The notes under the pieces were generated by a model, which was given only the letters and a program-made list of their open reading frames with translations, was not told the origin of the DNA and ran no database searches. Positions 19,948 through 37,127 of a stretch of 38,047 nucleotides of DNA are shown here, in pieces. Both the position numbers and the translations under genes were made by a program. This stretch comes from Magnetospirillum sp. WYHS-4 (GTDB lineage Bacteria > Pseudomonadota > Alphaproteobacteria > Rhodospirillales > GLO-3). The stretch covers positions 78,743-116,789 of the forward strand of contig JAMOBD010000007.1 of NCBI GenBank assembly GCA_039908345.1, in the 5' to 3' direction. Position 1 is the first letter of the stretch. Every line of letters starts with the position of its first letter.

Positions 19948-21573
19948 TCATACCGCCCGCCGCCGCCGATGGGAGGCGAGGAACAGGGGGGTGCGGGAAT
20001 GGGGGACCTTGTGGACGAAGTTGTATCGCGCCACGTGGTAGCTCGGATCGAAGCCGTAGAAGTTCAGCCGCATACGTTCCAACTCCCCGGCCCGGTAGGC
20101 ATCCAAAGGCTTGACGGCCTCGTCGGCGGCCCGGCGGGCCTTCTTCTCGGCGATCAAGGGGGCGACGTCCAGGTTGCGAGCCAGTTCCAGCACCTCGTCG
20201 AAATCACCGAAGGTGCCGTCGATCAGGCCCAGCCGTTCCGCCTGGGCGGCGCCCAGCGGCAGGCGCCGACCCATGATCCGTCCGATCCCGTCCTCCCCTA
20301 CCCTGCGGGGCAGCAGGTAGGTCCAGTATTCGGAGCCGTAAAGGTTGCCCATGTTCTTGTAATGAGGATTGAGTACGGCGCCGTCGCGCGCCAGCACCCG
20401 GTCGGCGGCCATGGCGAGGAAGACCCCGCCCGCTCCCGCGTTGCCCCGCATGGCGGCGATCACGTAGCGGTCGGTGGCGGACAGGATGGTCCGGCAAAGA
20501 TCGTCCATGGCTTCGATGTTGGCCATGGATTCGTCGGCCGGGCTGGCGGCGGCCTCGATGGCGTTCAGGTGGATGCCGTTGCACCAGAAGTCTTCCCCGC
20601 CGGCCAGCACGATGACCTTGGGGGCGCGGCTGCAGGCATGGCGGAAAGCCGCTTCCAGGCGCCGGCACTGGGCGGTGCTCATGGCGCCGTTATAAAGCGG
20701 GAACGTCAGGACGCCGACCCCGTCCCGTTCGCGAAAGCCGATCTCCGCCCAGGTGTCGGGCTCGAACTCGGGGGCGTCGATGTCGCCCAGGACGGCGGTG
20801 GCCGGCAGCTTCAGCTTGCCTTCGCCCGGTTCGCGGACGTGGCCGATCCAGACCGCGCCGTCCACCGTCCCCAGGCAGACCGCTCCCTTGTAGCGGGCGA
20901 TGGGCACGCCGGGGCGGCCCATCAGGGTGGTTTCCGGATGGGCGTCGAACAGATGGACCGCCCGGCCGCCGATCACGTCCAGCACACCGGGAAAGCCATC
21001 CGCGGCATGGATCTTCCGCAGAACGGTTTCGGTGTCGTCACGGTTCCAATCAATGGCCCGCATCTCCTGCTTCATGACGGGCCGCCAGGTGCCGGGCGGC
21101 GCCGGGTCGGGACGGCCGCCGGACTCGATCTTCGCCAGGGCCTCCAGCAGGGCGGCGACGGCGGCCTCGGTCACCTCGCGGCGATAGAGGCTGGCCTTGG
21201 GCGCCAAGCGCATGGGAAAGGTCCGGAAGGCCCAGACGGGACCGCCGTCCATTTCGGCGTTGGCCTGCAAGACGGTAACGCCCCAGTCCTCTTTCGCCTC
21301 ATGGATCGCCCAATCCAGGGACGACGGGCCGCGGTCGCCCGGCGGGCCCGGGTGGACCACCAGGCAGACATGGCGGCTCCAGACGCTTTGGGGGATGGCG
21401 CGGCGCAGGTAGGGGGCGATCACCAGGTCGGGACGGAAAATATCCACCGCCTCGATGGCGACCTCGTCCTTGATGTCGAATTCCACCGACAACTCGTGGC
21501 CCCGTTCCGCCAGTTCCACGTAAAGCCGCTGGGTCAGGCTGTTGAAGGCATGGGTCAGGAAGAGGATGCGCAT
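19948..21573 (-). CDS. hypX: HypX/HoxX, hydrogenase CO-ligand biosynthesis protein
   Basis: A 541-residue two-domain protein. Residues 1 to about 255 are a formyltransferase-type domain with the signature HPGPPGDRGPSSLDWAI (from His74). Residues about 265-541 are an enoyl-CoA hydratase/isomerase-type domain (VIVLAGGEDFWCNGIHLN, oxyanion region MRGNAGAGGVFLAMAADRV), with the HypX-specific tail SYHVARYNFVHKVPHSRTPL. HypX takes a formyl group from N10-formyl-tetrahydrofolate, makes formyl-CoA, and releases CO used as the active-site ligand of NiFe hydrogenases under aerobic conditions. The ATG has GGAGAGGG upstream, inside the end of the MFS gene it overlaps by 19 nt, implying translational coupling. 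No hydrogenase or other hyp gene is in the window. Confidence 0.92.
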   Translation of the reverse strand: MRILFLTHAFNSLTQRLYVELAERGHELSVEFDIKDEVAIEAVDIFRPDLVIAPYLRRAIPQSVWSRHVCLVVHPGPPGDRGPSSLDWAIHEAKEDWGVTVLQANAEMDGGPVWAFRTFPMRLAPKASLYRREVTEAAVAALLEALAKIESGGRPDPAPPGTWRPVMKQEMRAIDWNRDDTETVLRKIHAADGFPGVLDVIGGRAVHLFDAHPETTLMGRPGVPIARYKGAVCLGTVDGAVWIGHVREPGEGKLKLPATAVLGDIDAPEFEPDTWAEIGFRERDGVGVLTFPLYNGAMSTAQCRRLEAAFRHACSRAPKVIVLAGGEDFWCNGIHLNAIEAAASPADESMANIEAMDDLCRTILSATDRYVIAAMRGNAGAGGVFLAMAADRVLARDGAVLNPHYKNMGNLYGSEYWTYLLPRRVGEDGIGRIMGRRLPLGAAQAERLGLIDGTFGDFDEVLELARNLDVAPLIAEKKARRAADEAVKPLDAYRAGELERMRLNFYGFDPSYHVARYNFVHKVPHSRTPLFLASHRRRRAV

Positions 21574-27026: not shown

Positions 27027-28070
27027 ATGGCTCCGACGGCACCGCCCGCCAACCTTTCCTCGGAGGAGATGGGCCGCCTCAAGAAGACGGCCACGGCGAT
27101 ATCCCTGGCGGTCGCGGGGGTCATGCTCGGGATGAAGGTCGGGGCATGGGCTGCCACCAGTTCGGTGAGCGTCTTGACGTCCTTGATGGATTCGGTCCTG
27201 GACAATTCCGTCGCGCTCCTGAACTTCCTGGCCGTCCGTCAGGCGGTGCGCCAAGCGGACCGCTTCCATCGATTCGGCTTCGGTAAAGTCGAGCCCTTGG
27301 CGTCTTTGGTCGAATCGGTATTCCTTGTCGGCGTCGCAATCATGATCGTCATCGAGGCGATCGACCGTTTCGGCCATCCCCATTCCATTGCCCGGGCCGA
27401 ATGGGGAATCGGCGCCATGGCGGGCGTGATCGTCCTGACGGGTGGCTTGGTCCTTTATCAGCGGCACGTCGTCAGGTTGACGGGGTCGCTCATCCTGCGC
27501 GCCGACTCGGTCCATTACTCGACGGATATCCTCACGCATCTGGGAATCATCCTCTCCCTCGCCTTGTCGGGCCTTGGTGGCCTGTTATGGGTCGATGCGC
27601 TCTTCGCGCTTGGCATTGCGATTTACCTGGCCTGGAATGCCCGAAGCATCTTCATCGACGCCCTTGGCGCACTTCTCGACCGCGAACTTTGCGATGAAGA
27701 AAGGCACAAAATTCGGAACCTCGCCCTTTCCCATCCCGAAGTTCACGGCGTCCACGATCTGCGCACGCGGTCCTCGGGGGATAGGCTATTCATCCAGCTT
27801 CATGTTGAAATGGCCCCCGACCTCCCGTTGCGGGATGCCCACCGCTATGCGGAAGAAACCATAGACGTCATCCTGGCGGCCTATCCCAACGCCGAGGTCC
27901 AGGTTCACGAGGAACCCGTGGGAATGCCCCGCCATCGCTCTTGGTGCAGGCAGGCCGGACTTCCCACCCCCGAGTTCGCCGGAGAGTATGGGGGAATACC
28001 CCCGGAGCCCGGAGAGCGTCGCGAGAAGCCGTTGACCGGTTCCAAAATCCATGGCGATTTGGTAGAATGA
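27027..28070 (+). CDS. Cation diffusion facilitator transporter (FieF-like)
   Basis: A 347-residue CDF transporter, exporting divalent metals such as Fe2+, Zn2+ or Mn2+ in exchange for protons. Six membrane segments span about residues 20-220. The metal site in helix 2 is Asp55-x3-Asp59 (SLMDSVLDN) and in helix 5 His163-x3-Asp167 (VHYSTDILT), the DD-HD arrangement of the FieF/MamM-like branch. HRFGFGKVEPL is the conserved loop block. The cytoplasmic C-terminal domain (about 225-300) contains HPEVHGVHDLRTR and ends with an extra proline-rich tail of about 45 residues not usual for FieF. It is second in a two-gene operon, 4 nt after the small-protein gene. Confidence 0.92.
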   Translation: MAPTAPPANLSSEEMGRLKKTATAISLAVAGVMLGMKVGAWAATSSVSVLTSLMDSVLDNSVALLNFLAVRQAVRQADRFHRFGFGKVEPLASLVESVFLVGVAIMIVIEAIDRFGHPHSIARAEWGIGAMAGVIVLTGGLVLYQRHVVRLTGSLILRADSVHYSTDILTHLGIILSLALSGLGGLLWVDALFALGIAIYLAWNARSIFIDALGALLDRELCDEERHKIRNLALSHPEVHGVHDLRTRSSGDRLFIQLHVEMAPDLPLRDAHRYAEETIDVILAAYPNAEVQVHEEPVGMPRHRSWCRQAGLPTPEFAGEYGGIPPEPGERREKPLTGSKIHGDLVE

Positions 28071-28098: not shown

Positions 28099-28119
28099 TT
28101 GAAACAAGGAGACGTTCCG

Positions 28120-28410
28120 ATGTCGTCGACCGCGTCCATGGGAAGGGCTGCCGCGACGGCCGCACGTTCCTTTGTTTCTCTCCTCTCGGACCTCGCGGAG
28201 ATTCTTTCCGGTGCCGTGCTCCTGTCCGACCTCTCCAAGAAAAAGATCGAGCCCAACGTCCTTTATTCGACGACCGAGGTCGCGAAGTTTCTCGGCACCA
28301 GCCGTATCGAGGTCATCAGGGAAATTCACGCCGGCACCCTGCACGCCAAGAAGGTGGGCGACAACTACCGCATCACGGGAAAGAGCGTCATCACCTTCGT
28401 CGCGGGGTGA
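28120..28410 (+). CDS. Excisionase-family helix-turn-helix DNA-binding protein
   Basis: A 96-residue protein whose C-terminal half (about residues 46-95) is a winged-HTH of the MerR/excisionase type: LYSTTEVAKFLGTSRIEVIR, then EIHAGTLHAKKVGDNYRI and TGKSVITF. This domain is found in phage excisionases and in small chromosomal regulators. The N-terminal 45 residues are Ala/Ser-rich with a hydrophobic helix (SFVSLLSDLAEILSGAVLL), possibly for dimerisation or membrane contact. AAGGAG lies 8 nt before the ATG. No integrase or attachment site is seen nearby, so a regulator of the flanking CDF genes is more likely than an excisionase, though this is inference. It ends 6 bp from the convergent tandem CDF gene. 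Confidence 0.78.
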   Translation: MSSTASMGRAAATAARSFVSLLSDLAEILSGAVLLSDLSKKKIEPNVLYSTTEVAKFLGTSRIEVIREIHAGTLHAKKVGDNYRITGKSVITFVAG

Positions 28411-28416
28411 TCCTCG

Positions 28417-30513
28417 TCAAACCCTCTCAAGTTCGCCGGCGGTGGCCGATGGGGGCGTTTCATCGTCCCCCCGGGCCTCGGGCTCGGCATGGACGACCAC
28501 GCGGGAAACCCCCGATATCCGCTTCCTCAAGTCATGTTCGATCTTGGCCGTGGTGTCGCGAACGGCATCCATCGGAACGTCGTTCGGGAAGGTACAGTGG
28601 ACGGCGACGTAGATCCCGTCAGGGCCGCGCAGCATGGTCACCAATTGGCCCCTGCGGACCACAGCGAAAGACCCCACCACCTTCGTGACCAGGACGCGGG
28701 CCCGTTCCAACTCGTCCGCGGCGACCAACTCGCCATTCAAGACGTGGCTCCGCCGCGGATCGATATGGATGTCGATGCTGACGTTTCCGCCCAGTTCCTG
28801 AATCAAGCGATCCTCCAGGGCGGAGGCGACGTCGTGCGCCTCCCGGATGCCCAGGCGTCCATCGACCTCCAGGTCGAAGCCGATGTGACGGTGCTCGCCC
28901 ACCGCATGGATGTCGATGTTATGGACACCGAGGTTGTGGTTGGCGGCGGCGATGCGAATCGTTTCCGCCACATCCTCGTTATCCAGGGTCAGGGGTTCGA
29001 CGACCACCAGCGGGTCGACATCGGGAAGCTCGCTGGTGATCAGGGCATGCAGATTGTTCCGGATGTCCTGGACCCGTTCCAGGGGCAACCCGCGATTGAC
29101 CTTGACCACCACCTCGACGTACACGTAGGTCCCTGCGGGACGCGCACGTACCCGCTCGATGCGGGCGACGCCGGGATAGGCGGCCACCAATTTCGCGACG
29201 TCATCGGCGACACCTTCGGGAGCCGTATCGATCAACACATCGACGGTGCGCATGGCCAGGCGGTAGCCCGCCAGGAAAACGAACCCCGCCACGCCGATGG
29301 CCGCGATGGCGTCGCCCTTCTCCCAACCGATGGCGACGAACCCGAGACCGAGCAGCACGACGGCCGAGCTCCAGACGTCGGAGGAGAAATGGAGCGCATC
29401 CGCCTCGAGGGCCTTGCTGCCCGTCTCCTTGGCGACCTTCAAGAGAGCACGCGAACGATTGACGTCGATGACGATCGAGACGACGATGACGGCCACGGCA
29501 TACCATGTCGTCTTGACCTCGACGGCGTCCGTCATCAGGCGCGCGACCGCTTCCCGCAAAATCCAGGCACAGGTGAGAAACAGCAGCCCGGTTTCGATCA
29601 GGGCCGAAATGCTTTCGATCTTTCCATGCCCAAAGGGGTGTTCCTCGTCGGGAGGCTTGTCGCCGGCGCGCACCGCGAACCACGTCAGCGACGCGGCCCC
29701 GAGGTCCATGAAGGAATGCGCGGCTTCGGACAGGATGCCGAGACTTCCCGTCATCAGCCCGACGACGAGCTTCATGGCGGCCATGAAGGCGCTGGCGAAC
29801 ACCGAGGAAAGCGCGACGCTTTCCTTCCTGTCGCTCATGCTCTCGTCGGCCCAGACGGAATCCGCATCCGCGGACGAGGCGCCCATGTCCGTAAGGCTCG
29901 TCAAGCCCCGATAGGCGGCCATCACCCCGGTCCTGAGCACGGCCAGCGAAACCAGGATCGCGGCGACGCGGTCCGCGATCGGCCAGCCGAGAAAGGCGAG
30001 CACGATGCCCAGCAACGCCACGCTCGAAACGAACGCATCCATCTTCTCGTCCAGGGACGCCGAAGAAGGCACGGAGCAGCCGTCGTGCTGGTCCACGCAT
30101 TTTTCATACCGGCGCATGAGCACGAACGTGGCGATGCCGAGGACGACTCCCAGGACCGAAAGCTCGCTCGGGACATCCAACACGCCGTCGCCGATGTCGC
30201 GCAGGCTCAGGAAGGAGACCAGGATCGCCCCCCCCGCCAAACCGGCACCGATCAAGACCGCCAGGAAATGCAGCAGCTTGGCGGTTTCAATCCGCGACTT
30301 CTTGGGAAACAGGCGGGATGCCACGTCGAGCCCCGCCCGAGAACTCCCTTTGGTCAGGAACCCGGCGGCGGCTCGCAGGCCGTAGGCACTCATCGCCGAA
30401 CTGCCGGTAAGAACGCCGAACGCTCCCATGAATACAGCCGTACCCAAGCTGACCTGCAAACCAAATCCATCCGTTTCAGGACGACATTCTTCGCAAGTCT
30501 TGGCAGTAGCCAT
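28417..30513 (-). CDS. Fused tandem CDF protein: degenerate MamB/MamM-like half, complete CDF half, three C-terminal domains
   Basis: A 698-residue protein; the ATG giving MATAKTCEECRPE is chosen because GGAG lies 6 nt upstream, and an ATG five codons earlier has a poorer site. Residues 7-10 form a CxxC (CEEC). Residues about 18-210 look like a CDF membrane domain that has lost the helix-2 metal pair (Arg and Gly at those positions) but keeps Asp155-x3-Asp159 in helix 5; the block RRYEKCV...SVALLGI...AYRGL recalls MamM. Residues about 230-430 are a complete CDF domain with His266-x3-Asp270, HPFGHGKIES and His375-x3-Asp379. Residues 431-508, 515-588 and 600-680 are three CDF C-terminal-like domains. 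It probably exports a divalent metal. Comparison with MamB/MamM is from memory. Confidence 0.82.
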   Translation of the reverse strand: MATAKTCEECRPETDGFGLQVSLGTAVFMGAFGVLTGSSAMSAYGLRAAAGFLTKGSSRAGLDVASRLFPKKSRIETAKLLHFLAVLIGAGLAGGAILVSFLSLRDIGDGVLDVPSELSVLGVVLGIATFVLMRRYEKCVDQHDGCSVPSSASLDEKMDAFVSSVALLGIVLAFLGWPIADRVAAILVSLAVLRTGVMAAYRGLTSLTDMGASSADADSVWADESMSDRKESVALSSVFASAFMAAMKLVVGLMTGSLGILSEAAHSFMDLGAASLTWFAVRAGDKPPDEEHPFGHGKIESISALIETGLLFLTCAWILREAVARLMTDAVEVKTTWYAVAVIVVSIVIDVNRSRALLKVAKETGSKALEADALHFSSDVWSSAVVLLGLGFVAIGWEKGDAIAAIGVAGFVFLAGYRLAMRTVDVLIDTAPEGVADDVAKLVAAYPGVARIERVRARPAGTYVYVEVVVKVNRGLPLERVQDIRNNLHALITSELPDVDPLVVVEPLTLDNEDVAETIRIAAANHNLGVHNIDIHAVGEHRHIGFDLEVDGRLGIREAHDVASALEDRLIQELGGNVSIDIHIDPRRSHVLNGELVAADELERARVLVTKVVGSFAVVRRGQLVTMLRGPDGIYVAVHCTFPNDVPMDAVRDTTAKIEHDLRKRISGVSRVVVHAEPEARGDDETPPSATAGELERV

Positions 30514-30755
30514 GTTATTCTCCGACATGCTCGATCGACATTTCCCCGCCTGCACGGGCCGCGCCCCGAAGAACTCGGGAAGCAAGGCACCAAGCGGCGA
30601 TCCTGGAGTTCTAGCGAAAATGCCCCGCCTTGTCAGCAAAAATGGGGCGTTCTCCCGGCCCCCACGACAAAGCCATGATACTTGTTCGGGGCCGGCATCA
30701 TGACATATCATCCGGCGCGCCATCCCAGGAACCAACGCGGAAAGCACCGGACCGC

Positions 30756-30995
30756 ATGACCCTATTGAATCAAGCATTGCATATGCTGGCCTTGGGGTTC
30801 GTGGGCTTGGTGTTCCTGCCCCTGTATTTCCTTCCGGCCATCATCGCAGCCCTTGCCGGCCATCCCCAAAAAATCCAGGTCTTTGTTTTCAATCTTCTTC
30901 TAGGATGGACCGGACTGGCATGGGTCATCGCCCTGGGTTGGGTGCTGGCGGGCCCTCGGAAGCCGCGCGATACCGACCAGGGTCGGATTTCTTGA
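30756..30995 (+). CDS. Superinfection-immunity-type small membrane protein
   Basis: A 79-residue protein with two membrane segments and the family pattern of phage superinfection immunity proteins: YFLPAIIAALAGHPQKIQVF followed by VFNLLLGWTGLAWVIALGWVLA. In T4 the equivalent blocks DNA entry by later phages, but most chromosomal copies have no known function. The ATG follows a 243-bp gap from the divergent tandem CDF gene, with no strong ribosome site. No other phage gene is nearby. Confidence 0.75.
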   Translation: MTLLNQALHMLALGFVGLVFLPLYFLPAIIAALAGHPQKIQVFVFNLLLGWTGLAWVIALGWVLAGPRKPRDTDQGRIS

Positions 30996-31083: not shown

Positions 31084-31440
31084 TTGGTCAGGCCCTATCA
31101 CGACGTAAAGAAGCATTGGCCCCTGGACATCTTCTGGAAGCGAAAGCAGAAAGCCATTCAGGAGATCGAGCAGCGGACCGGGCATCATGGCCCGCATCAT
31201 GAATCGACGCCTCCCGAGAGCCTCCGCCTGATCGAGCAGATGGATCACATCCTCAAACTGCTCGAGAAGAAGGAACGGGCCCGCAAGCATATGTTCGCCA
31301 AGGTCCTGCTGGGTTGGCTGGTGGCCTACAGCCTGGTTTCGGGCGAGGTGCCCTGGTTCGTCGTCAAGGCTTGGCATTCGATCAATCACGCGGCGGCGGC
31401 GGTCGGCGCATCGCCGCCGCCCACGCCATCCCCGCCGTAG
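31084..31440 (+). CDS. Membrane-anchored protein of unknown function
   Basis: A 118-residue protein starting with TTG (31084), 8 nt after AGGAAGG. The N-terminal 75 residues are basic and helical with a His-rich patch (TGHHGPHHES) and a coiled-coil-like stretch (LIEQMDHILKLLEKKERARK). One membrane segment is near residues 79-100 (FAKVLLGWLVAYSLVSGEVP). The tail is Pro/Ala-rich (ASPPPTPSPP). I do not recognise a family. Its position, 68 bp before a receiver-HPt gene, suggests a link to that signalling cluster. The TTG start is less certain than the frame. Confidence 0.6.
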   Translation: MVRPYHDVKKHWPLDIFWKRKQKAIQEIEQRTGHHGPHHESTPPESLRLIEQMDHILKLLEKKERARKHMFAKVLLGWLVAYSLVSGEVPWFVVKAWHSINHAAAAVGASPPPTPSPP

Positions 31441-31467
31441 GGACGGGGGGGGTAGTCTTTCGTGGGA

Positions 31468-31485
31468 CCAGGGGCTTAGCCCTGG
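31468..31485 (+). other. Hairpin followed by a G-run before the receiver-HPt gene
   Basis: CCAGGG-GCTTAG-CCCTGG, a perfect 6-bp stem, followed by a 7-G run (31484-31490); an 8-G run precedes it at 31445-31452. It lies 23 nt before the GTG start and could influence translation of the receiver gene. Confidence 0.35.
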
Positions 31486-31508
31486 GGGGGCATTGGGGAG
31501 AGGGACTG

Positions 31509-32579
31509 GTGACCACATACGACTTGGACCGCGTGTCCGTCCTGCTGGTCGAGGACAATCGCTTCATCCGCGGCATTCTCGAAGACATGCTGCGGCATTT
31601 CCGTTTCGGGCGGATCAGCACCTGCGCCAACGGGCAAGAGGCCATCGATTATCTCAAGACCATGCGCGCGGGAATGTCTCCCGGCTCGCCGCCGCCGCTC
31701 GACATGGTGATTTCCGACCTGGTGATGTCGCCCATCAACGGCCTGTTGCTGCTGCGCTGGTTGCGCAGCGCCAAGGAATCGCCCAATCGCTTCGTCCCCT
31801 TCATCATGCTGTCGGGGGCGGCCGACCGGGATTACGTGAATGCCTGCCGCGACCTCGGGGTTACCGAATTCCTGGGAAAGCCCTTCGCCGCGGAAGCGGT
31901 GTACAAGCGCCTTCTGGAAGTCATCGACCACCCGCGCCAATTCGTGACGACCCAGCGATATTTCGGCCCGGACCGCCGCCGCCAGGATCTTCCCCCTCCC
32001 GATGGCGAGGACCGGCGCGTGACGAGTGACGCGGACGTCACCGTCGTCTATTCGGCGGACAAGGTCGTGAAGGCGACCCGGCCGACCGAGGTCTGGTATT
32101 TCCGCCTGCCCAACCGATTGAAGGAGAAGGTCGGCGGAGGTGGGGGACGATCCAGCGCCGGGGAGCTTCCCATGGACTTGCTGGAGGAAGCCGAAAACAA
32201 GTTGGAAAGGGCCGCCCTCGACTTCACCGAATGGGCCACCAGCTACCTGGCGAAGCTTTCCGACCTCTGCACCGAGGCCCTGATGAAGCCGGGGCGCCGC
32301 GACAGCTATTTCCACGAGATCAACCTCCTGGCGCACGAATTGCGCGGCCAGGGCGGGACCTTCGGCTATCCGCTGGTCAGCATGTTCGGCAAGATGCTCT
32401 ATGACGTGACCGGCGAGAACTGCCGCGAAGACGACAACGCGGTCGAGATCGTCAAGGCCCACATCGACACCATGCGCGCCGTGCTGCGCGAGAAGATCGT
32501 CGGCGACGGCGGCCAGTTGGGGCGCGAACTCCTGAAGGCCCTCAGGTTGGCGATCGACAAGTATTCCGTGGTGACGTGA
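31509..32579 (+). CDS. Response regulator with receiver domain and HPt-like C-terminal domain
   Basis: A 356-residue protein. The N-terminal receiver (about 8-140) has the acidic pair in LLVEDN, phosphoacceptor Asp70 (MVISDLVMSPING), and Lys124 (FLGKPF). A linker with YFGPDRRRQDLPPPDGEDRR follows. The C-terminal domain (about 225-350) is helical, with LLAHELRGQGGTFGYPL, in which His276 is placed like the phosphorylated histidine of HPt domains (H-x-L-[KR]-G). The protein could therefore receive phosphate at Asp70 and relay it. There is no DNA-binding domain. The start is a GTG preceded by GGGGAGAGGG. It converges with a CheY-like gene (16 bp between stops), whose kinase is the likely upstream partner. 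Confidence 0.8.
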   Translation: MTTYDLDRVSVLLVEDNRFIRGILEDMLRHFRFGRISTCANGQEAIDYLKTMRAGMSPGSPPPLDMVISDLVMSPINGLLLLRWLRSAKESPNRFVPFIMLSGAADRDYVNACRDLGVTEFLGKPFAAEAVYKRLLEVIDHPRQFVTTQRYFGPDRRRQDLPPPDGEDRRVTSDADVTVVYSADKVVKATRPTEVWYFRLPNRLKEKVGGGGGRSSAGELPMDLLEEAENKLERAALDFTEWATSYLAKLSDLCTEALMKPGRRDSYFHEINLLAHELRGQGGTFGYPLVSMFGKMLYDVTGENCREDDNAVEIVKAHIDTMRAVLREKIVGDGGQLGRELLKALRLAIDKYSVVT

Positions 32580-32595
32580 CCCCCTCGCGGGATCT

Positions 32596-32991
32596 TCAGG
32601 CGTTTTCCTCCAGGCAGGCCCGCACTTCCTTGACGAGCTTGTCCGCGGTGAAGGGCTTGAAGATATACTTGGTCACCCCCCCCGTCTTGGCATCGATGAC
32701 ATGGTCCAGCAGGCCGCTGGCCGTTATCATGATGAAGGGAACGCCGCGGCCCACCGCCGCCGAACGCACCTTGTTCAGAAGCTCGATGCCGGTCATTCCC
32801 GGCATGGTCAAATCGCTGATGACGAGATCGAAGGGCACGGCGGCGTTTTCGAACAGTTCCCACGCCTTGGCGCCATCCTCCGCGAACACGACATCCTGAA
32901 TTCCCACGCCCTTCAGCATCATCCCGACCAAGGTCCGATGGTCGCGGTTATCTTCTACGACCATGATCCGTCTGGAACTGGATATCGCCAT
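32596..32991 (-). CDS. Single-domain CheY-like response regulator
   Basis: A 131-residue stand-alone receiver. The acidic pair is in VVEDNRDH, the phosphoacceptor is Asp60 (DLVISDLTMPGMTG), Thr90 is in IMITASG, and Lys112 is in YIFKPF; all residues needed for phosphorylation-driven switching are present. There is no output domain, so it acts by protein contact or passes phosphate to another protein. The ATG is preceded by GGGGG at 9 nt. It starts 102 nt after the sensor kinase gene on the same strand and is probably its direct target; the receiver-HPt protein next door is a candidate phosphorelay partner. Confidence 0.9.
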   Translation of the reverse strand: MAISSSRRIMVVEDNRDHRTLVGMMLKGVGIQDVVFAEDGAKAWELFENAAVPFDLVISDLTMPGMTGIELLNKVRSAAVGRGVPFIMITASGLLDHVIDAKTGGVTKYIFKPFTADKLVKEVRACLEENA

Positions 32992-33093
32992 CGCTTGTCC
33001 CCCACTCGATGAACATTGATCGAGTCCATTGCCCGCCGACGAATGTAGCGAACCCGACACCGAAAAGCCAGTCCTGGCGTTCCTTCCCCCGGT

Positions 33094-35802
33094 TCAGGCG
33101 GACGGGCGATCGACCTGCGGCAAGTCGACCCAGAAGGTGCTCCCCTTCCCGACCTCGCTTTCCATGCCCAAGGTTCCGCCCATCTCCTCGACCAGACGCT
33201 TGGTGATGTACAGCCCGATGCCGATGCCCTCGATCGCGGATCTGTCGTGGGCGAGACGCGAAAAGGGCTGGAAAAGCCCGTCGCGTTGATCGGACGCAAT
33301 TCCGAGCCCGGTGTCCGACACCGAAAGGCGAAACATCCCGCCCGGCCTTTCGCCACCCCGCACGACCACCATTCCCCTGGCGGGAGTATATTTGATGGCA
33401 TTGCTCAGGAAATTGAACATGACTTGGCGAAAGCGGGTGGTATCGATCCTGACGCGGACACCGGGCATGCCGTCGACCCTGACGGCCACGCCGCACCGGT
33501 CCGCGATGGGCCCGACCATGGCGACCGTTTCCCCGACAAGGGACGAGGGATCGACATCCACGAGGGTGAGATCGATCTTTCCCGCCTCGATCCTGGAAAG
33601 GTCCAGCAGTTGCTCGATCAACGCCAGGAGATGCCGTCCCGCGCCGAGCACCTTGCCGACGCACTCCGCCTGCATATCCGAAAGGGCGCCGGCACCGCCC
33701 GCCTGAAGCAGGTCGGAAAAACCGATGACGGAGTGGAGCGGCGTCCGCATCTCATGGCTCATCGCGCTGAGGAATTCGGATTTGGCGCGGTTGGCCCGCT
33801 CCGCCTCCTCCTTGGCCACCGCCAACTGGTGCGTCCGCCATTCGACCATTTCCTCCAGGTGCTGGCGATGGAGGGCCAGTTCTTGTTCGTTCCGATGCAG
33901 CAAGACGATCCCCGCCAGGGCATCGGCCATCGTGTGCAGGAATACCGCTTCCGTTTCGTCGTAGTCGTGACCGTCGGCCACGTAGGTGTTCAGTACCCCG
34001 AGCACCGCCTCGCCGCTTTGAATGGGAACGCAATAATGCCCGTGGGGCGATATCCCGGGGTAGGAGATATCGTGGCGCTCATCGATCGTCGCCGCATGGA
34101 CGAGCTCGCGCAGGGCGGCGGCCCGCCCGCACAGGCATCGTTCCACCGGCAGTTCCGCGCAGGACGTGCGGATTTCGTCGGAAAGTCCCTGCTGCACCGC
34201 CATGACCAGCTTCCGTCCGTCATCCGCCATCAGGAAGATGCAGCCCTTGGACATGATCTTCATGCCCTTGGCCGACAGGACCATGGAAAGGGCCTTTTCC
34301 AGGGCCGCTTCCAGCGGTATGCGTTCCAGGGCGATCCTGAGGATGCCCGCGATGATGGATTGCGCGACGACCGTCGACTTCAGAAGTTCTTCCCGCGCCG
34401 CCTGTTCGGTGATGTCGTGGACGGTGCCGATCATCCGCCGGGGTGTTCCCGTCGCGTCGCGTTCCACTCTCCCCTTCTCGCGCACGACCCGGACGGCCCC
34501 ATCGGGCCGAACGATGCGGTGGTCGATATCGTAGGCATACGACGCATCCTTCAGGGCGAGATCGACCCCGGCGATGACGTGAGGCCGGTCGTCGGGGTGA
34601 ACGGACCCGAGAAACACCTCGTAGGTCGGGCCGATGCTGCCGGGTTCGAGACCGAAGATCCGGTACACTTCCTCGGTCCAGGACAGCGATCCCCCGGCGA
34701 TGTTCCATTCCCAACTGCCGAGATGCGCGATCCTTTGCGCCTCGAGCATGGTCTCCTGAGTCCAGTCCAGTTCCTCGATGTGGCCTCGCAGCGACGCTTC
34801 GCTGGCCCGAAAATCCGTCTCGATCCGATCGGCGAGACTTCCGAACCACCAGACCACGAAAGCGCCTCCCAGGACGAGAGCGATCAGCAGGAGGGAAAGC
34901 TGGCCCAGAAACGCGACGTAGCGCTCGGTCACGTCGTCGAGGACGGAGAGAATCCCCACCGTCCGGCCACCCGCGTCCATCAAGGGGACCCATCCCACGC
35001 CGAAACGGCGCCCTTCGACCGTCATGTTGAGGTGGCCTCGGCCGCCGCCCCCCGCCATCCGGTCCACGCGCCCCATCACTTCGGCCGGCATGGCGATTTG
35101 CCCGTCGCCGGCCTGCACGATATTCGCCAGAAGGTCCCAGTGCGAGGGACGGCCCAGCCTTTTCATACCCGCATCCCAGCCTTCGCGGGAGAGCCGGTCC
35201 TTGAAGATGAAGATCGCGACATCGTCGTCGAAGGCGGTCCGCAAGCCCTCGATCAGGCTGTCGATCTCCGTGCCCAATTCGATGAACCCGATAAGACGGT
35301 CCCCATCCCGCCACGGCGCGACGACCCGAAAGGTCAGAGTGCCCAGGGGACCGAGTTCCACGCCCGACGAAACCGCCCCGGTACGCGCGGCGTCCCTGGT
35401 CGATACCCGGTCGATGACGTCGCCATGCCAGCTTGGCTCATGAACGCGCAGGAAGCTGGTCCGGTCCGATCCGGTGAAATAGAAGTGGCTGATCCCGCTC
35501 TTCTCCTTGAGCCGCAGGAAGGCGGGAAGAGCCCTTTGGCGAAGCGCCTCGCGGTCCCCGGCAAGAAACGCCGTCCTCAGGGAGGCGTCCTGCACGAGAT
35601 GGGACAACGCCTCCTCCAGGATCTGGGTCTGGCTCCGGATGCCGTAGAGAAACATGGCCTCGACGTCCTTGACGAGCGCCTCGGCCCTTCCGCGCTCCCG
35701 CTCGCCGTGGAGCCAGAAGCCGCCCGCGAGGATCCCGGCGAACACGACGATCGTGAAGCCAAGCAACGGTATCAGAATTTGCTTCCTGATCGAAACCGAC
35801 AT
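33094..35802 (-). CDS. Membrane sensor histidine kinase (double-Cache, PAS, GAF, HisKA, HATPase)
   Basis: A 902-residue kinase. A membrane helix at about 8-30 and another at 299-321 enclose a periplasmic sensory region of the double-Cache type (GISHFYFTGSDRTSFLRVHE is characteristic). A cytoplasmic PAS/PAC domain is at about 350-468. A GAF domain at about 490-635 contains RCLCGRAA and HGHYCVPIQSGEAVLGVLNT. HisKA has the phosphorylated His683 in SAMSHEMRTPLHSVIGFSDL. The HATPase domain has the N box NFLSNAIKYT, G1 DTGLGI and G2 GIGIGLYITKRL. There is no receiver domain at the C terminus, so the downstream CheY-like protein is the probable acceptor. GGGAG lies before the ATG. The ligand is unknown. 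Confidence 0.93.
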   Translation of the reverse strand: MSVSIRKQILIPLLGFTIVVFAGILAGGFWLHGERERGRAEALVKDVEAMFLYGIRSQTQILEEALSHLVQDASLRTAFLAGDREALRQRALPAFLRLKEKSGISHFYFTGSDRTSFLRVHEPSWHGDVIDRVSTRDAARTGAVSSGVELGPLGTLTFRVVAPWRDGDRLIGFIELGTEIDSLIEGLRTAFDDDVAIFIFKDRLSREGWDAGMKRLGRPSHWDLLANIVQAGDGQIAMPAEVMGRVDRMAGGGGRGHLNMTVEGRRFGVGWVPLMDAGGRTVGILSVLDDVTERYVAFLGQLSLLLIALVLGGAFVVWWFGSLADRIETDFRASEASLRGHIEELDWTQETMLEAQRIAHLGSWEWNIAGGSLSWTEEVYRIFGLEPGSIGPTYEVFLGSVHPDDRPHVIAGVDLALKDASYAYDIDHRIVRPDGAVRVVREKGRVERDATGTPRRMIGTVHDITEQAAREELLKSTVVAQSIIAGILRIALERIPLEAALEKALSMVLSAKGMKIMSKGCIFLMADDGRKLVMAVQQGLSDEIRTSCAELPVERCLCGRAAALRELVHAATIDERHDISYPGISPHGHYCVPIQSGEAVLGVLNTYVADGHDYDETEAVFLHTMADALAGIVLLHRNEQELALHRQHLEEMVEWRTHQLAVAKEEAERANRAKSEFLSAMSHEMRTPLHSVIGFSDLLQAGGAGALSDMQAECVGKVLGAGRHLLALIEQLLDLSRIEAGKIDLTLVDVDPSSLVGETVAMVGPIADRCGVAVRVDGMPGVRVRIDTTRFRQVMFNFLSNAIKYTPARGMVVVRGGERPGGMFRLSVSDTGLGIASDQRDGLFQPFSRLAHDRSAIEGIGIGLYITKRLVEEMGGTLGMESEVGKGSTFWVDLPQVDRPSA

Positions 35803-35912
35803 ATCCGCTCCCGGGCAATCCTATCCTTATTCATTCCTTGAAAGATATTCTCCCAGAAAAGCGCCGCCAGGAAAACACTTGGTATCCGACGAAATGCCGC
35901 AATGATATGCTA

Positions 35913-35929
35913 ATAATTCCTAGAATTAT
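35913..35929. promoter_or_regulatory. Candidate operator palindrome
   Basis: ATAATTC-CTA-GAATTAT, perfect 7-bp arms, 111 bp upstream of the sensor kinase ATG and about 180 bp upstream of the divergent receiver's -10. It resembles a dimeric repressor site. No cognate regulator is identified. Confidence 0.4.
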
Positions 35930-36166
35930 CGTTAACACATTGAAGCTGATGTGCTTTAAACTTTACCAGGGTGGACCTCGGCCTTCCCCTGGGCAGCAGC
36001 CCCACCAAGATAAATCCGGGCACTATGAAACACCGGCGACACTAAAGCGGGATATACAGTGCCTACGTTGGGCCATGAAAAAATCACGTGAATAAGATGT
36101 CCGGGCCACCTATATTTAACGGCGCATGATGTCATCGTCGGGTGGGGAACGTTTGATGCTCAGGGG

Positions 36167-36210
36167 GCACTTGTCGCCAAGTCGTCGGCTGTCCCCCCCC
36201 CGACAGGTGC
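36167..36210 (+). promoter_or_regulatory. Leader hairpin with poly-C loop before the receiver gene
   Basis: GCACTTGTCG (36167-36176) pairs with CGACAGGTGC (36201-36210), 10 bp with one G-U, enclosing a 24-nt loop that ends in a C-run (9 Cs at 36193-36201 including the stem's first base). It lies about 11 nt before the AAGGGG ribosome site of the receiver gene, so it could control translation. Confidence 0.35.
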
Positions 36211-36230
36211 GTCGAGCGCGGTAAGGGGTC

Positions 36231-37127
36231 ATGAACAAGAACAAGATCGCCACCAATCATCTGCGAGCCTATGACCTGTCGCGTGTCAGGTTCTTGGTCG
36301 TGGACCCCAACCCCCATATGCGGAAGCTCTACAAGGAGATTTTCCGCGCCTGGGGGGTGGCTATCGTCGACGAGGCGGACAGCGCCGATTCCGGGCTTCC
36401 CCTGTTCCGGGAATTCCGGCACGACATCATCATCACCGAGAAGCTGATCTCGCCTACGGATGGGATTGCCCTGGTGAAGACGATACGGCGGCACGTCGAC
36501 GAAGCTTGCCGCGTCGTTCCGATCATCATGGCGACAAGTTGTACCGAGGAACGCTTCGTCGTCGGGGCGCGGGACAGCGGCGTGACGGAATTCCTCGCCA
36601 AACCGATCACCGTCAAGGGGATATACGACCGTATATGCGCGATCGTCGAAGACGAACGCCCGTTCCTCGTAAGCCGGGGGTATTGCGGCCCCTGCCGTCG
36701 CCGGCACAAGAAACACGATTATGCCGGCCCCTTCCTGCGCGTGGACGACTGGCTGAAGATCTGTCGCCAAGCGGTCGACGAAGCGGGCGCCATGGCCATG
36801 GAAGCCGAAGCCATCGCCTCCGAAAATTCTTCGGCGATAATCGTGGGACACGTTAAACTGTCGACACAGGCGGCCGAACAGGCAAAGGCGGCGCTCATGG
36901 CGGCGGAGTCGTCCAAGACCGTCAAGGCGGTCAAGGTGCAAATCGAGCTTGCCGAAAAAGCCCGGCAGGACGCGGCATCGGCGCGGGACGCGGCTCTCGC
37001 CGCCCAGGCGGCGCTTGAGATCGCGGCGCCGCCGCCCCCCGCGAAGACCGAGGACGAGGCCACCGCCCTTTCGCAGGAACGTGTCGCCACGATGTTGAAA
37101 AAGCAATCGGGACGGGATGGCGGCTGA
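36231..37127 (+). CDS. Receiver-domain protein with Glu at the phosphorylation site
   Basis: A 298-residue protein. The receiver domain (about 18-140) keeps one acidic residue of the pair (VVDPNP), the Ser/Thr (IMATSC) and Lys (FLAKPI), but the phosphoacceptor is Glu70 (DIIITEKLISPTDG), so it cannot be phosphorylated there and may mimic the active state. It is followed by LVSRGYCGPCRRR, equivalent to the GPDRR linker in the two neighbouring receivers, and by an Ala-rich coiled-coil region (about 175-265) with a Pro-rich end. There is no DNA-binding domain. AAGGGG is 3-4 nt before the ATG, a short spacing. A third receiver gene follows after 91 nt. Confidence 0.82.
   Translation: MNKNKIATNHLRAYDLSRVRFLVVDPNPHMRKLYKEIFRAWGVAIVDEADSADSGLPLFREFRHDIIITEKLISPTDGIALVKTIRRHVDEACRVVPIIMATSCTEERFVVGARDSGVTEFLAKPITVKGIYDRICAIVEDERPFLVSRGYCGPCRRRHKKHDYAGPFLRVDDWLKICRQAVDEAGAMAMEAEAIASENSSAIIVGHVKLSTQAAEQAKAALMAAESSKTVKAVKVQIELAEKARQDAASARDAALAAQAALEIAAPPPPAKTEDEATALSQERVATMLKKQSGRDGG

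What the first reader, a model, noticed from the sequence alone, without database searches (positions are those of the whole stretch)
28417..30513. Fused double CDF protein with one degenerate membrane half and three C-terminal domains
The sequence shows two CDF-like membrane units in one chain. The first has lost its helix-2 metal pair (Arg/Gly) but keeps Asp155/Asp159; the second is complete (His266/Asp270 and His375/Asp379). Three ferredoxin-like C-terminal units follow instead of one. Known CDF transporters are homo- or heterodimers of about 300 residues. MamB and MamM form a heterodimer in which one partner is poor at transport. A fused pseudo-half plus active half could be a covalent version of such a pair. 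The CxxC near the N terminus resembles MamB from memory.
Basis: partly seen in the sequence, partly recalled or inferred. Interest (0 to 1): 0.75.

Follow-up and report, generated by a model that had tools for sequence, protein, structure and literature searches.

The report
Magnetosome transporter half fused to exporter
A bacterium that carries magnetosome genes encodes one protein in which the membrane half of a magnetosome-type metal transporter, with its first metal-binding pair lost, is joined to a second transporter unit that keeps all its metal-binding residues; the first half likely serves as a non-transporting docking partner for the second, which is predicted to export metal.

Summary
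In detail: minus strand, 28417-30513, 698 aa, two CDF membrane units and three CTDs. The first unit has Arg47/Gly51 where relatives have His/Tyr and Asp, and keeps Asp155/Asp159; the second is complete (H266/D270/H375/D379). New here: the halves have different origins. Residues 226-698 belong to a widespread unfused ~460-aa CDF subfamily that already has three CTDs, so the CTD count is ordinary. Residues 1-211 group with MamV, a third magnetosome CDF; tree tests reject MamB and a copy of the second half. They lack a CTD and sit on a very long branch. The genome holds a mamAB operon, and the gene lies beside a MamR-like and a FieF gene, as MamV does in islets of related genomes. The fusion was seen in one genome only: of 20 three-CTD CDFs in 317 genomes of the order, 19 are unfused. 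Best reading: a metal exporter (inferred) that likely gained a non-transporting MamV membrane domain as anchor or partner for magnetosome CDFs. A covalent pseudo-heterodimer is not excluded. No expression data; the N half was not folded with its own alignment.

The parts
28417..30513 (-). fused CDF gene, 698 aa
   Evidence: single open frame, GGAG before ATG
29881..30513 (-). N half, residues 1-211: MamV-like membrane unit without CTD
   Evidence: MamV profile best stretch 5-220; tree inside MamV branch 99/97
30361..30375 (-). residues 47-51 RAAAG: lost helix-2 metal pair (R47, G51)
   Evidence: alignment; column check
30520..30523 (-). GGAG, likely ribosome-binding site of codon 1
29839..29880 (-). 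junction linker, residues 212-225
   Evidence: unfused relatives begin at the residue matching Met226
28417..29838 (-). C half, residues 226-698: complete three-CTD CDF
29227..29814 (-). C-half membrane domain, residues 234-429, with H266/D270/H375/D379
28993..29211 (-). CTD1, residues 435-507
   Evidence: matches MamM/MamB CTD structures
28753..28980 (-). CTD2, residues 512-587
28480..28719 (-). CTD3, residues 599-678
28099..28410 (+). MamR-like gene (103 aa), convergent neighbour
   Evidence: NF040990 78.8 bits, below cut-off 100; own operon MamR scores 91.9
27027..28070 (+). FieF-type CDF gene, 67.6% identical to the FieF of the G057 MamV islet

Best explanation
The protein is a fusion of a MamV-like membrane domain, whose helix-2 metal pair and CTD are lost, to a complete three-CTD CDF, and it likely works as a metal exporter carrying a built-in non-transporting partner domain. 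Shown by sequence: the different affinities of the two halves, the lost and kept residues, the ordinary branch of the C half against the very long branch of the N half, and the MamR-like and FieF neighbours in a genome with a mamAB operon. Inferred: the C half pairs with another C half through its CTDs and exchanges divalent metal for protons as other CDFs do; the N half no longer moves metal but keeps its helix 6, and would bind magnetosome CDFs (MamV, MamB or MamM), so placing the exporter beside the magnetosome iron machinery. Architecture and affinity I hold at about 0.9; the docking role at about 0.35.
For: Two sources: AU tests reject the N half as one clade with three-CTD CDFs (p 0.006) and with MamB (p 0.013); best place is in the MamV branch beside P0123 (groups named after the tree was seen). 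C half 47-71% identical to the best 120 relatives listed, end branch 0.25 against 0.12-0.24. N half: branch 3.86 against 0.057 for P0123; 40 of 65 conserved MamV columns kept, 4 of 12 in helix 2 and the 2-3 loop but 8 of 9 in helix 6. Aligned with P0123 over residues 2-211 without gaps, no frameshift found in the odd helix 2-3 stretch, codon-position GC bias usual from residue 76 on: speaks for coding constraint rather than decay by indels. Six helices predicted per half, which would keep both halves parallel. Own mamAB operon. MamV, CZB and MamR together in 6 of 30 MamR loci examined, convergent FieF complete in 3 of these 6 and a 43-residue piece in a fourth. [quoted passage not shown]
Against: No expression, localisation or interaction data. 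The fusion is in one genome only. By profile alone the N half scores MamB (121.0 bits) slightly above MamV (119.0). The N half was not folded with its own relatives; in the full model its blocks have pLDDT 29-67. Helix 2 of the N half is barely hydrophobic (mean 0.24), and loop charges give no clear topology. The window's MamR-like protein is only 30% identical to the islet MamR and 36% to the operon MamR, and no CZB gene was matched in the window. The gene is not inside the mamAB operon. Residues 1-75 have weak codon-position bias. The N half could be a tolerated remnant.
Confidence: 0.42

Rival explanations
1. Covalent pseudo-heterodimer: within one chain the metal-less N half would pair with the C-half membrane domain as its dimer partner, like ZnT6 with ZnT5.
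For: Two predicted six-helix units joined by a short linker; loss of the helix-2 site with helix 6 kept; ZnT6 has lost its metal motif and pairs with ZnT5 (PMC10932157, passages).
Against: The C half has its own three CTDs and full site, as in unfused relatives that do without an N half; the N half groups with MamV, not with the C half, so no co-evolved interface is expected.
Confidence: 0.25
2. Passenger: the N half is a MamV remnant joined by accident, kept in frame because the C half is needed, with little function of its own.
For: Very long branch, 25 of 65 conserved columns lost, lost CTD; G000 also has a MamV-like gene on C40 and a single match to the three-CTD CDF at E 1e-80, the fused one.
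Against: No gap against P0123 over 210 residues, no frameshift in helices 2-3, codon score 0.185 in frame and negative in the five other frames, uneven loss between helices, a ribosome site above background found before codon 1 but not before Met226.
Confidence: 0.22
3. Sequence or assembly error: two neighbouring genes read as one through a missed stop or a chimeric join.
For: Only one genome and one contig hold it in what was searched.
Against: The junction lies inside a 116,789-base contig (one search gives the place, another the length); Met226 has no ribosome site above background (-3.0 against mean -3.2), which fits a true fusion; frame and codon bias run through the junction. No independent read of the junction was available.
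Confidence: 0.06

Closest known systems
MamV (NF040994), the extra CDF downstream of mamU in AMB-1
   Same: CxxC N terminus, helix order, 37% identity of the N half, MamR and FieF neighbours in the islet form
   Different: The MamV frames found are about 300-430 aa with one CTD and a H or Y ... D pair; mamV is called of unknown function (PMC10470508, one passage)
Unfused three-CTD CDF of Rhodospirillaceae and others (P0004, P0031)
   Same: Residues 226-698, all site A residues, three CTDs; P0004 66% identical over 66% of the query
   Different: No N-terminal MamV half; just upstream of uvrA in 8 of 19 loci of the order, within the 1.5-kb flanks held
MamB-MamM
   Same: Magnetosome CDFs that pair, one depending on the other
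   Different: Two separate genes; both are present in this genome over their cut-offs
ZnT5-ZnT6, Msc2-Zrg17
   Same: One partner without metal site (ZnT6); Msc2 and ZnT5 have 12 and 15 predicted membrane helices (PMC1868760, passages)
   Different: Separate eukaryotic chains; whether the extra helices of Msc2 or ZnT5 are a second CDF unit was not tested here

Membership tests
CDF superfamily (TIGR01297, PF01545) | profile match over cut-off | tested here: met
   249.8 bits against 82.35; Pfam 177.1 against 26.6, two stretches; N half alone 40.8 bits to PF01545, over cut-off
CDF superfamily (TIGR01297, PF01545) | site A of four acidic/His ligands in helices 2 and 5 | tested here: inconclusive
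   met in the C half (H266, D270, H375, D379), not met in the N half (R47, G51)
MamV equivalog (NF040994) | curated cut-off 500 bits, length about 319 | tested here: not met
   225.4 bits for the whole protein, best stretch 5-220; groups with MamV but is not a MamV
MamB equivalog (NF033616) | curated cut-off 350 bits | tested here: not met
   273.8 bits over three stretches; AU test rejects N half with MamB, p 0.0126
MamM equivalog (NF033615) | curated cut-off 350 bits | tested here: not met
   167.5 bits
Three-CTD CDF subfamily | one membrane unit plus three ZT_dimer CTDs | tested here: met
   residues 226-698; 9 of 9 relatives scanned have one membrane unit and three CTDs; the G018 relative has two
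Metal transport by this protein | moves divalent metal | not testable with these tools
   no assay
Magnetosome protein | resides in the magnetosome membrane | not testable with these tools
   only genome content and neighbours known

The most novel reading that the evidence does not exclude
A magnetosome CDF was captured, stripped of its metal site and CTD, and turned into the built-in pseudo-subunit of a house-keeping metal exporter: the first natural covalent pseudo-heterodimeric CDF in bacteria, wiring general metal efflux to the magnetosome.
Probability: 0.25. Interest if true: 0.75.

Novelty: new variant of a known kind. Interest (0 to 1): 0.55.

Why it matters
CDF transporters work as dimers, and how an inactive partner helps an active one (MamB with MamM, ZnT6 with ZnT5) is hard to study because partners come apart. 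A natural one-chain version fixes the pairing and lets it be tested directly. It also suggests that magnetosome CDF parts can be recruited outside the mamAB operon, and that MamV, of unknown function, can be kept as a non-transporting domain.

Tried and rejected
Internal duplication of the C half: rejected (AU p 0.006; the best BLASTP piece is 51 residues). Frameshift as the cause of the odd helix 2-3 stretch: rejected, frame 0 aligns gap-free and scores 55 against 17 and 28. The N half as a MamB: rejected by tree (p 0.013), though the profile scores tie; as an islet MamV: not rejected (p 0.09). The tree warns that long rows (own FieF 5.23, N half 3.86, own MamM 2.97) are placed unsurely. A second start at Met226: no ribosome site above background. 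Other fusions: none seen among the best 120 of 1710 hits (the rest were not shown to me), in 60 genomes of the relatives search, in 317 of the order (35 with an N-half match), or in 385 of the class (2 with a match); each of these genome counts includes G000. The N half found no match at E 1e-3 in the 19 loci of unfused three-CTD CDFs. The fold comparison spans 221-511 of the model, so it says nothing about the N half. In alignment A3 the MamV rows were laid on the C half by MAFFT, so A5 without them was folded. The CTD self-comparison was weak: CTD1-CTD3 was reached by 2 of 500 shuffles, CTD1-CTD2 by 48 and CTD2-CTD3 by 50. A fused bacterial CDF was not found in the listings of searches (capped lists for the last three; most subscription journals are not in that library).

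Full report
Observation. The gene runs on the minus strand, 28417-30513, 698 aa, without a stop. Pfam gives two Cation_efflux and three ZT_dimer stretches. By alignment to E. coli FieF these four match what I recall as its site A, and Asp289, His292 and His296 what I recall as its site B.

N half. On its own it scores 121.0 bits with the MamB model and 119.0 with the MamV model, a tie. The nearest protein found is P0123 (41% identity, 95% coverage, 310 aa). A tree of 38 membrane domains puts it in the MamV branch (99/97), beside P0123 (97/94), on a very long branch of 3.86 changes per column, so its exact place is unsure. AU tests reject one clade with MamB (p 0.013) or with the C-half family (p 0.006), but not with the islet MamV (p 0.09); the groups were named after the tree was seen. 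It has lost the CTD, the helix-2 pair and the FPYGYGK loop (0 of 4 conserved columns of residues 67-78) but keeps 8 of 9 in helix 6; overall 40 of 65 (62%), while six MamV rows tested one by one keep 72-97%. It aligns with P0123 without gaps and shows no frameshift in helices 2-3. In the full model it forms helices in the CDF order, but with pLDDT 29-67 by blocks, since no N-half rows were in that alignment. A fold of the N half with its own 60-row alignment could not be had.

Genome. The genome (3.65 Mb, 172 contigs) has mamH, mamE, mamK, mamM, mamO, mamQ, mamB and mamS matches together on contig C56; H, K, M, Q and B pass their NCBIfam cut-offs, E, O and S stay below. It has a MamV-like gene on C40 (413.9 bits, cut-off 500), followed by a CZB-domain gene and then uvrA. 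Beside the fused gene lie a MamR-like gene (78.8 bits, cut-off 100; the operon's own MamR has 91.9) and a FieF gene. Of 30 MamR loci of the order that I examined, six hold MamV, CZB and MamR together; three of these six have a complete convergent FieF, 67-68% identical to the window's, and a fourth a 43-residue piece. The window's MamR-like protein itself is only 30% identical to that islet MamR and 36% to its own operon MamR. So the place upstream of uvrA, held by the three-CTD CDF in 8 loci of other genomes, is held by MamV-CZB here, while the CDF stands next to FieF and MamR as part of the fusion. I infer that a rearrangement between a MamV islet and the CDF locus made the fusion; no step of it was observed.

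Mechanism. Shown: architecture, two affinities, lost and kept residues, neighbourhood. Inferred: the C half exports divalent metal as a CTD-linked dimer. The N half, without its metal site, is likely a partner domain. Three readings remain: docking to magnetosome CDFs (my choice, since its relatives pair with one another), pairing with its own C half, or a passive remnant. The gap-free alignment, the uneven loss between helices and a ribosome site before codon 1 but not before Met226 speak against a mere remnant, but weakly; the weakly hydrophobic helix 2 and the weak codon bias of residues 1-75 speak for it.

Known and new. [quoted passage not shown] ZnT6 lacks the metal motif and pairs with ZnT5 (PMC10932157, passages). 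mamV is called of unknown function (PMC10470508, one passage). A fusion of two CDF units in one bacterial chain was not found in the listings of four paper searches. It is a new variant of a known kind, seen in one genome.

Noticed in passing
L026:14125-15515 (genome contig C40): A MamV-like gene with a Tyr...Asp helix-2 pair and a CZB-domain gene lie between rsmA and uvrA, where 8 loci of other genomes carry the three-CTD CDF beside uvrA.
   Followed up: partly
L060:2565-9638: In G057 (its contig C27 has length 611092, the longest contig listed for the P. magnetotacticum MS-1 protein P0031, so probably that species) MamV, CZB, MamR and FieF form an islet beside a gene that looks like an integrase and one that looks like a mobilisation protein (my reading of the sequences, no profile run).
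   Followed up: partly
L064 (G161, one contig of 4,967,148 bases): Its MamV lies about 3 kb from a MamB match; the size is that recalled for Magnetospirillum magneticum AMB-1.
   Followed up: no
window 19948-21573 -: One ORF with formyltransferase-like N part and enoyl-CoA-hydratase-like C part, as recalled for HypX/HoxX.
   Followed up: no
window 31314-37127: Receiver-domain genes (31314-32579, 36231-37127) and a large sensor kinase (33094-35802) upstream of the fused gene.
   Followed up: no
window 28417-30777 -: The protein database lists this gene with a later start (670 aa, P0003), which would cut off the CxxC and part of helix 1; the GGAG site favours 30513.
   Followed up: yes
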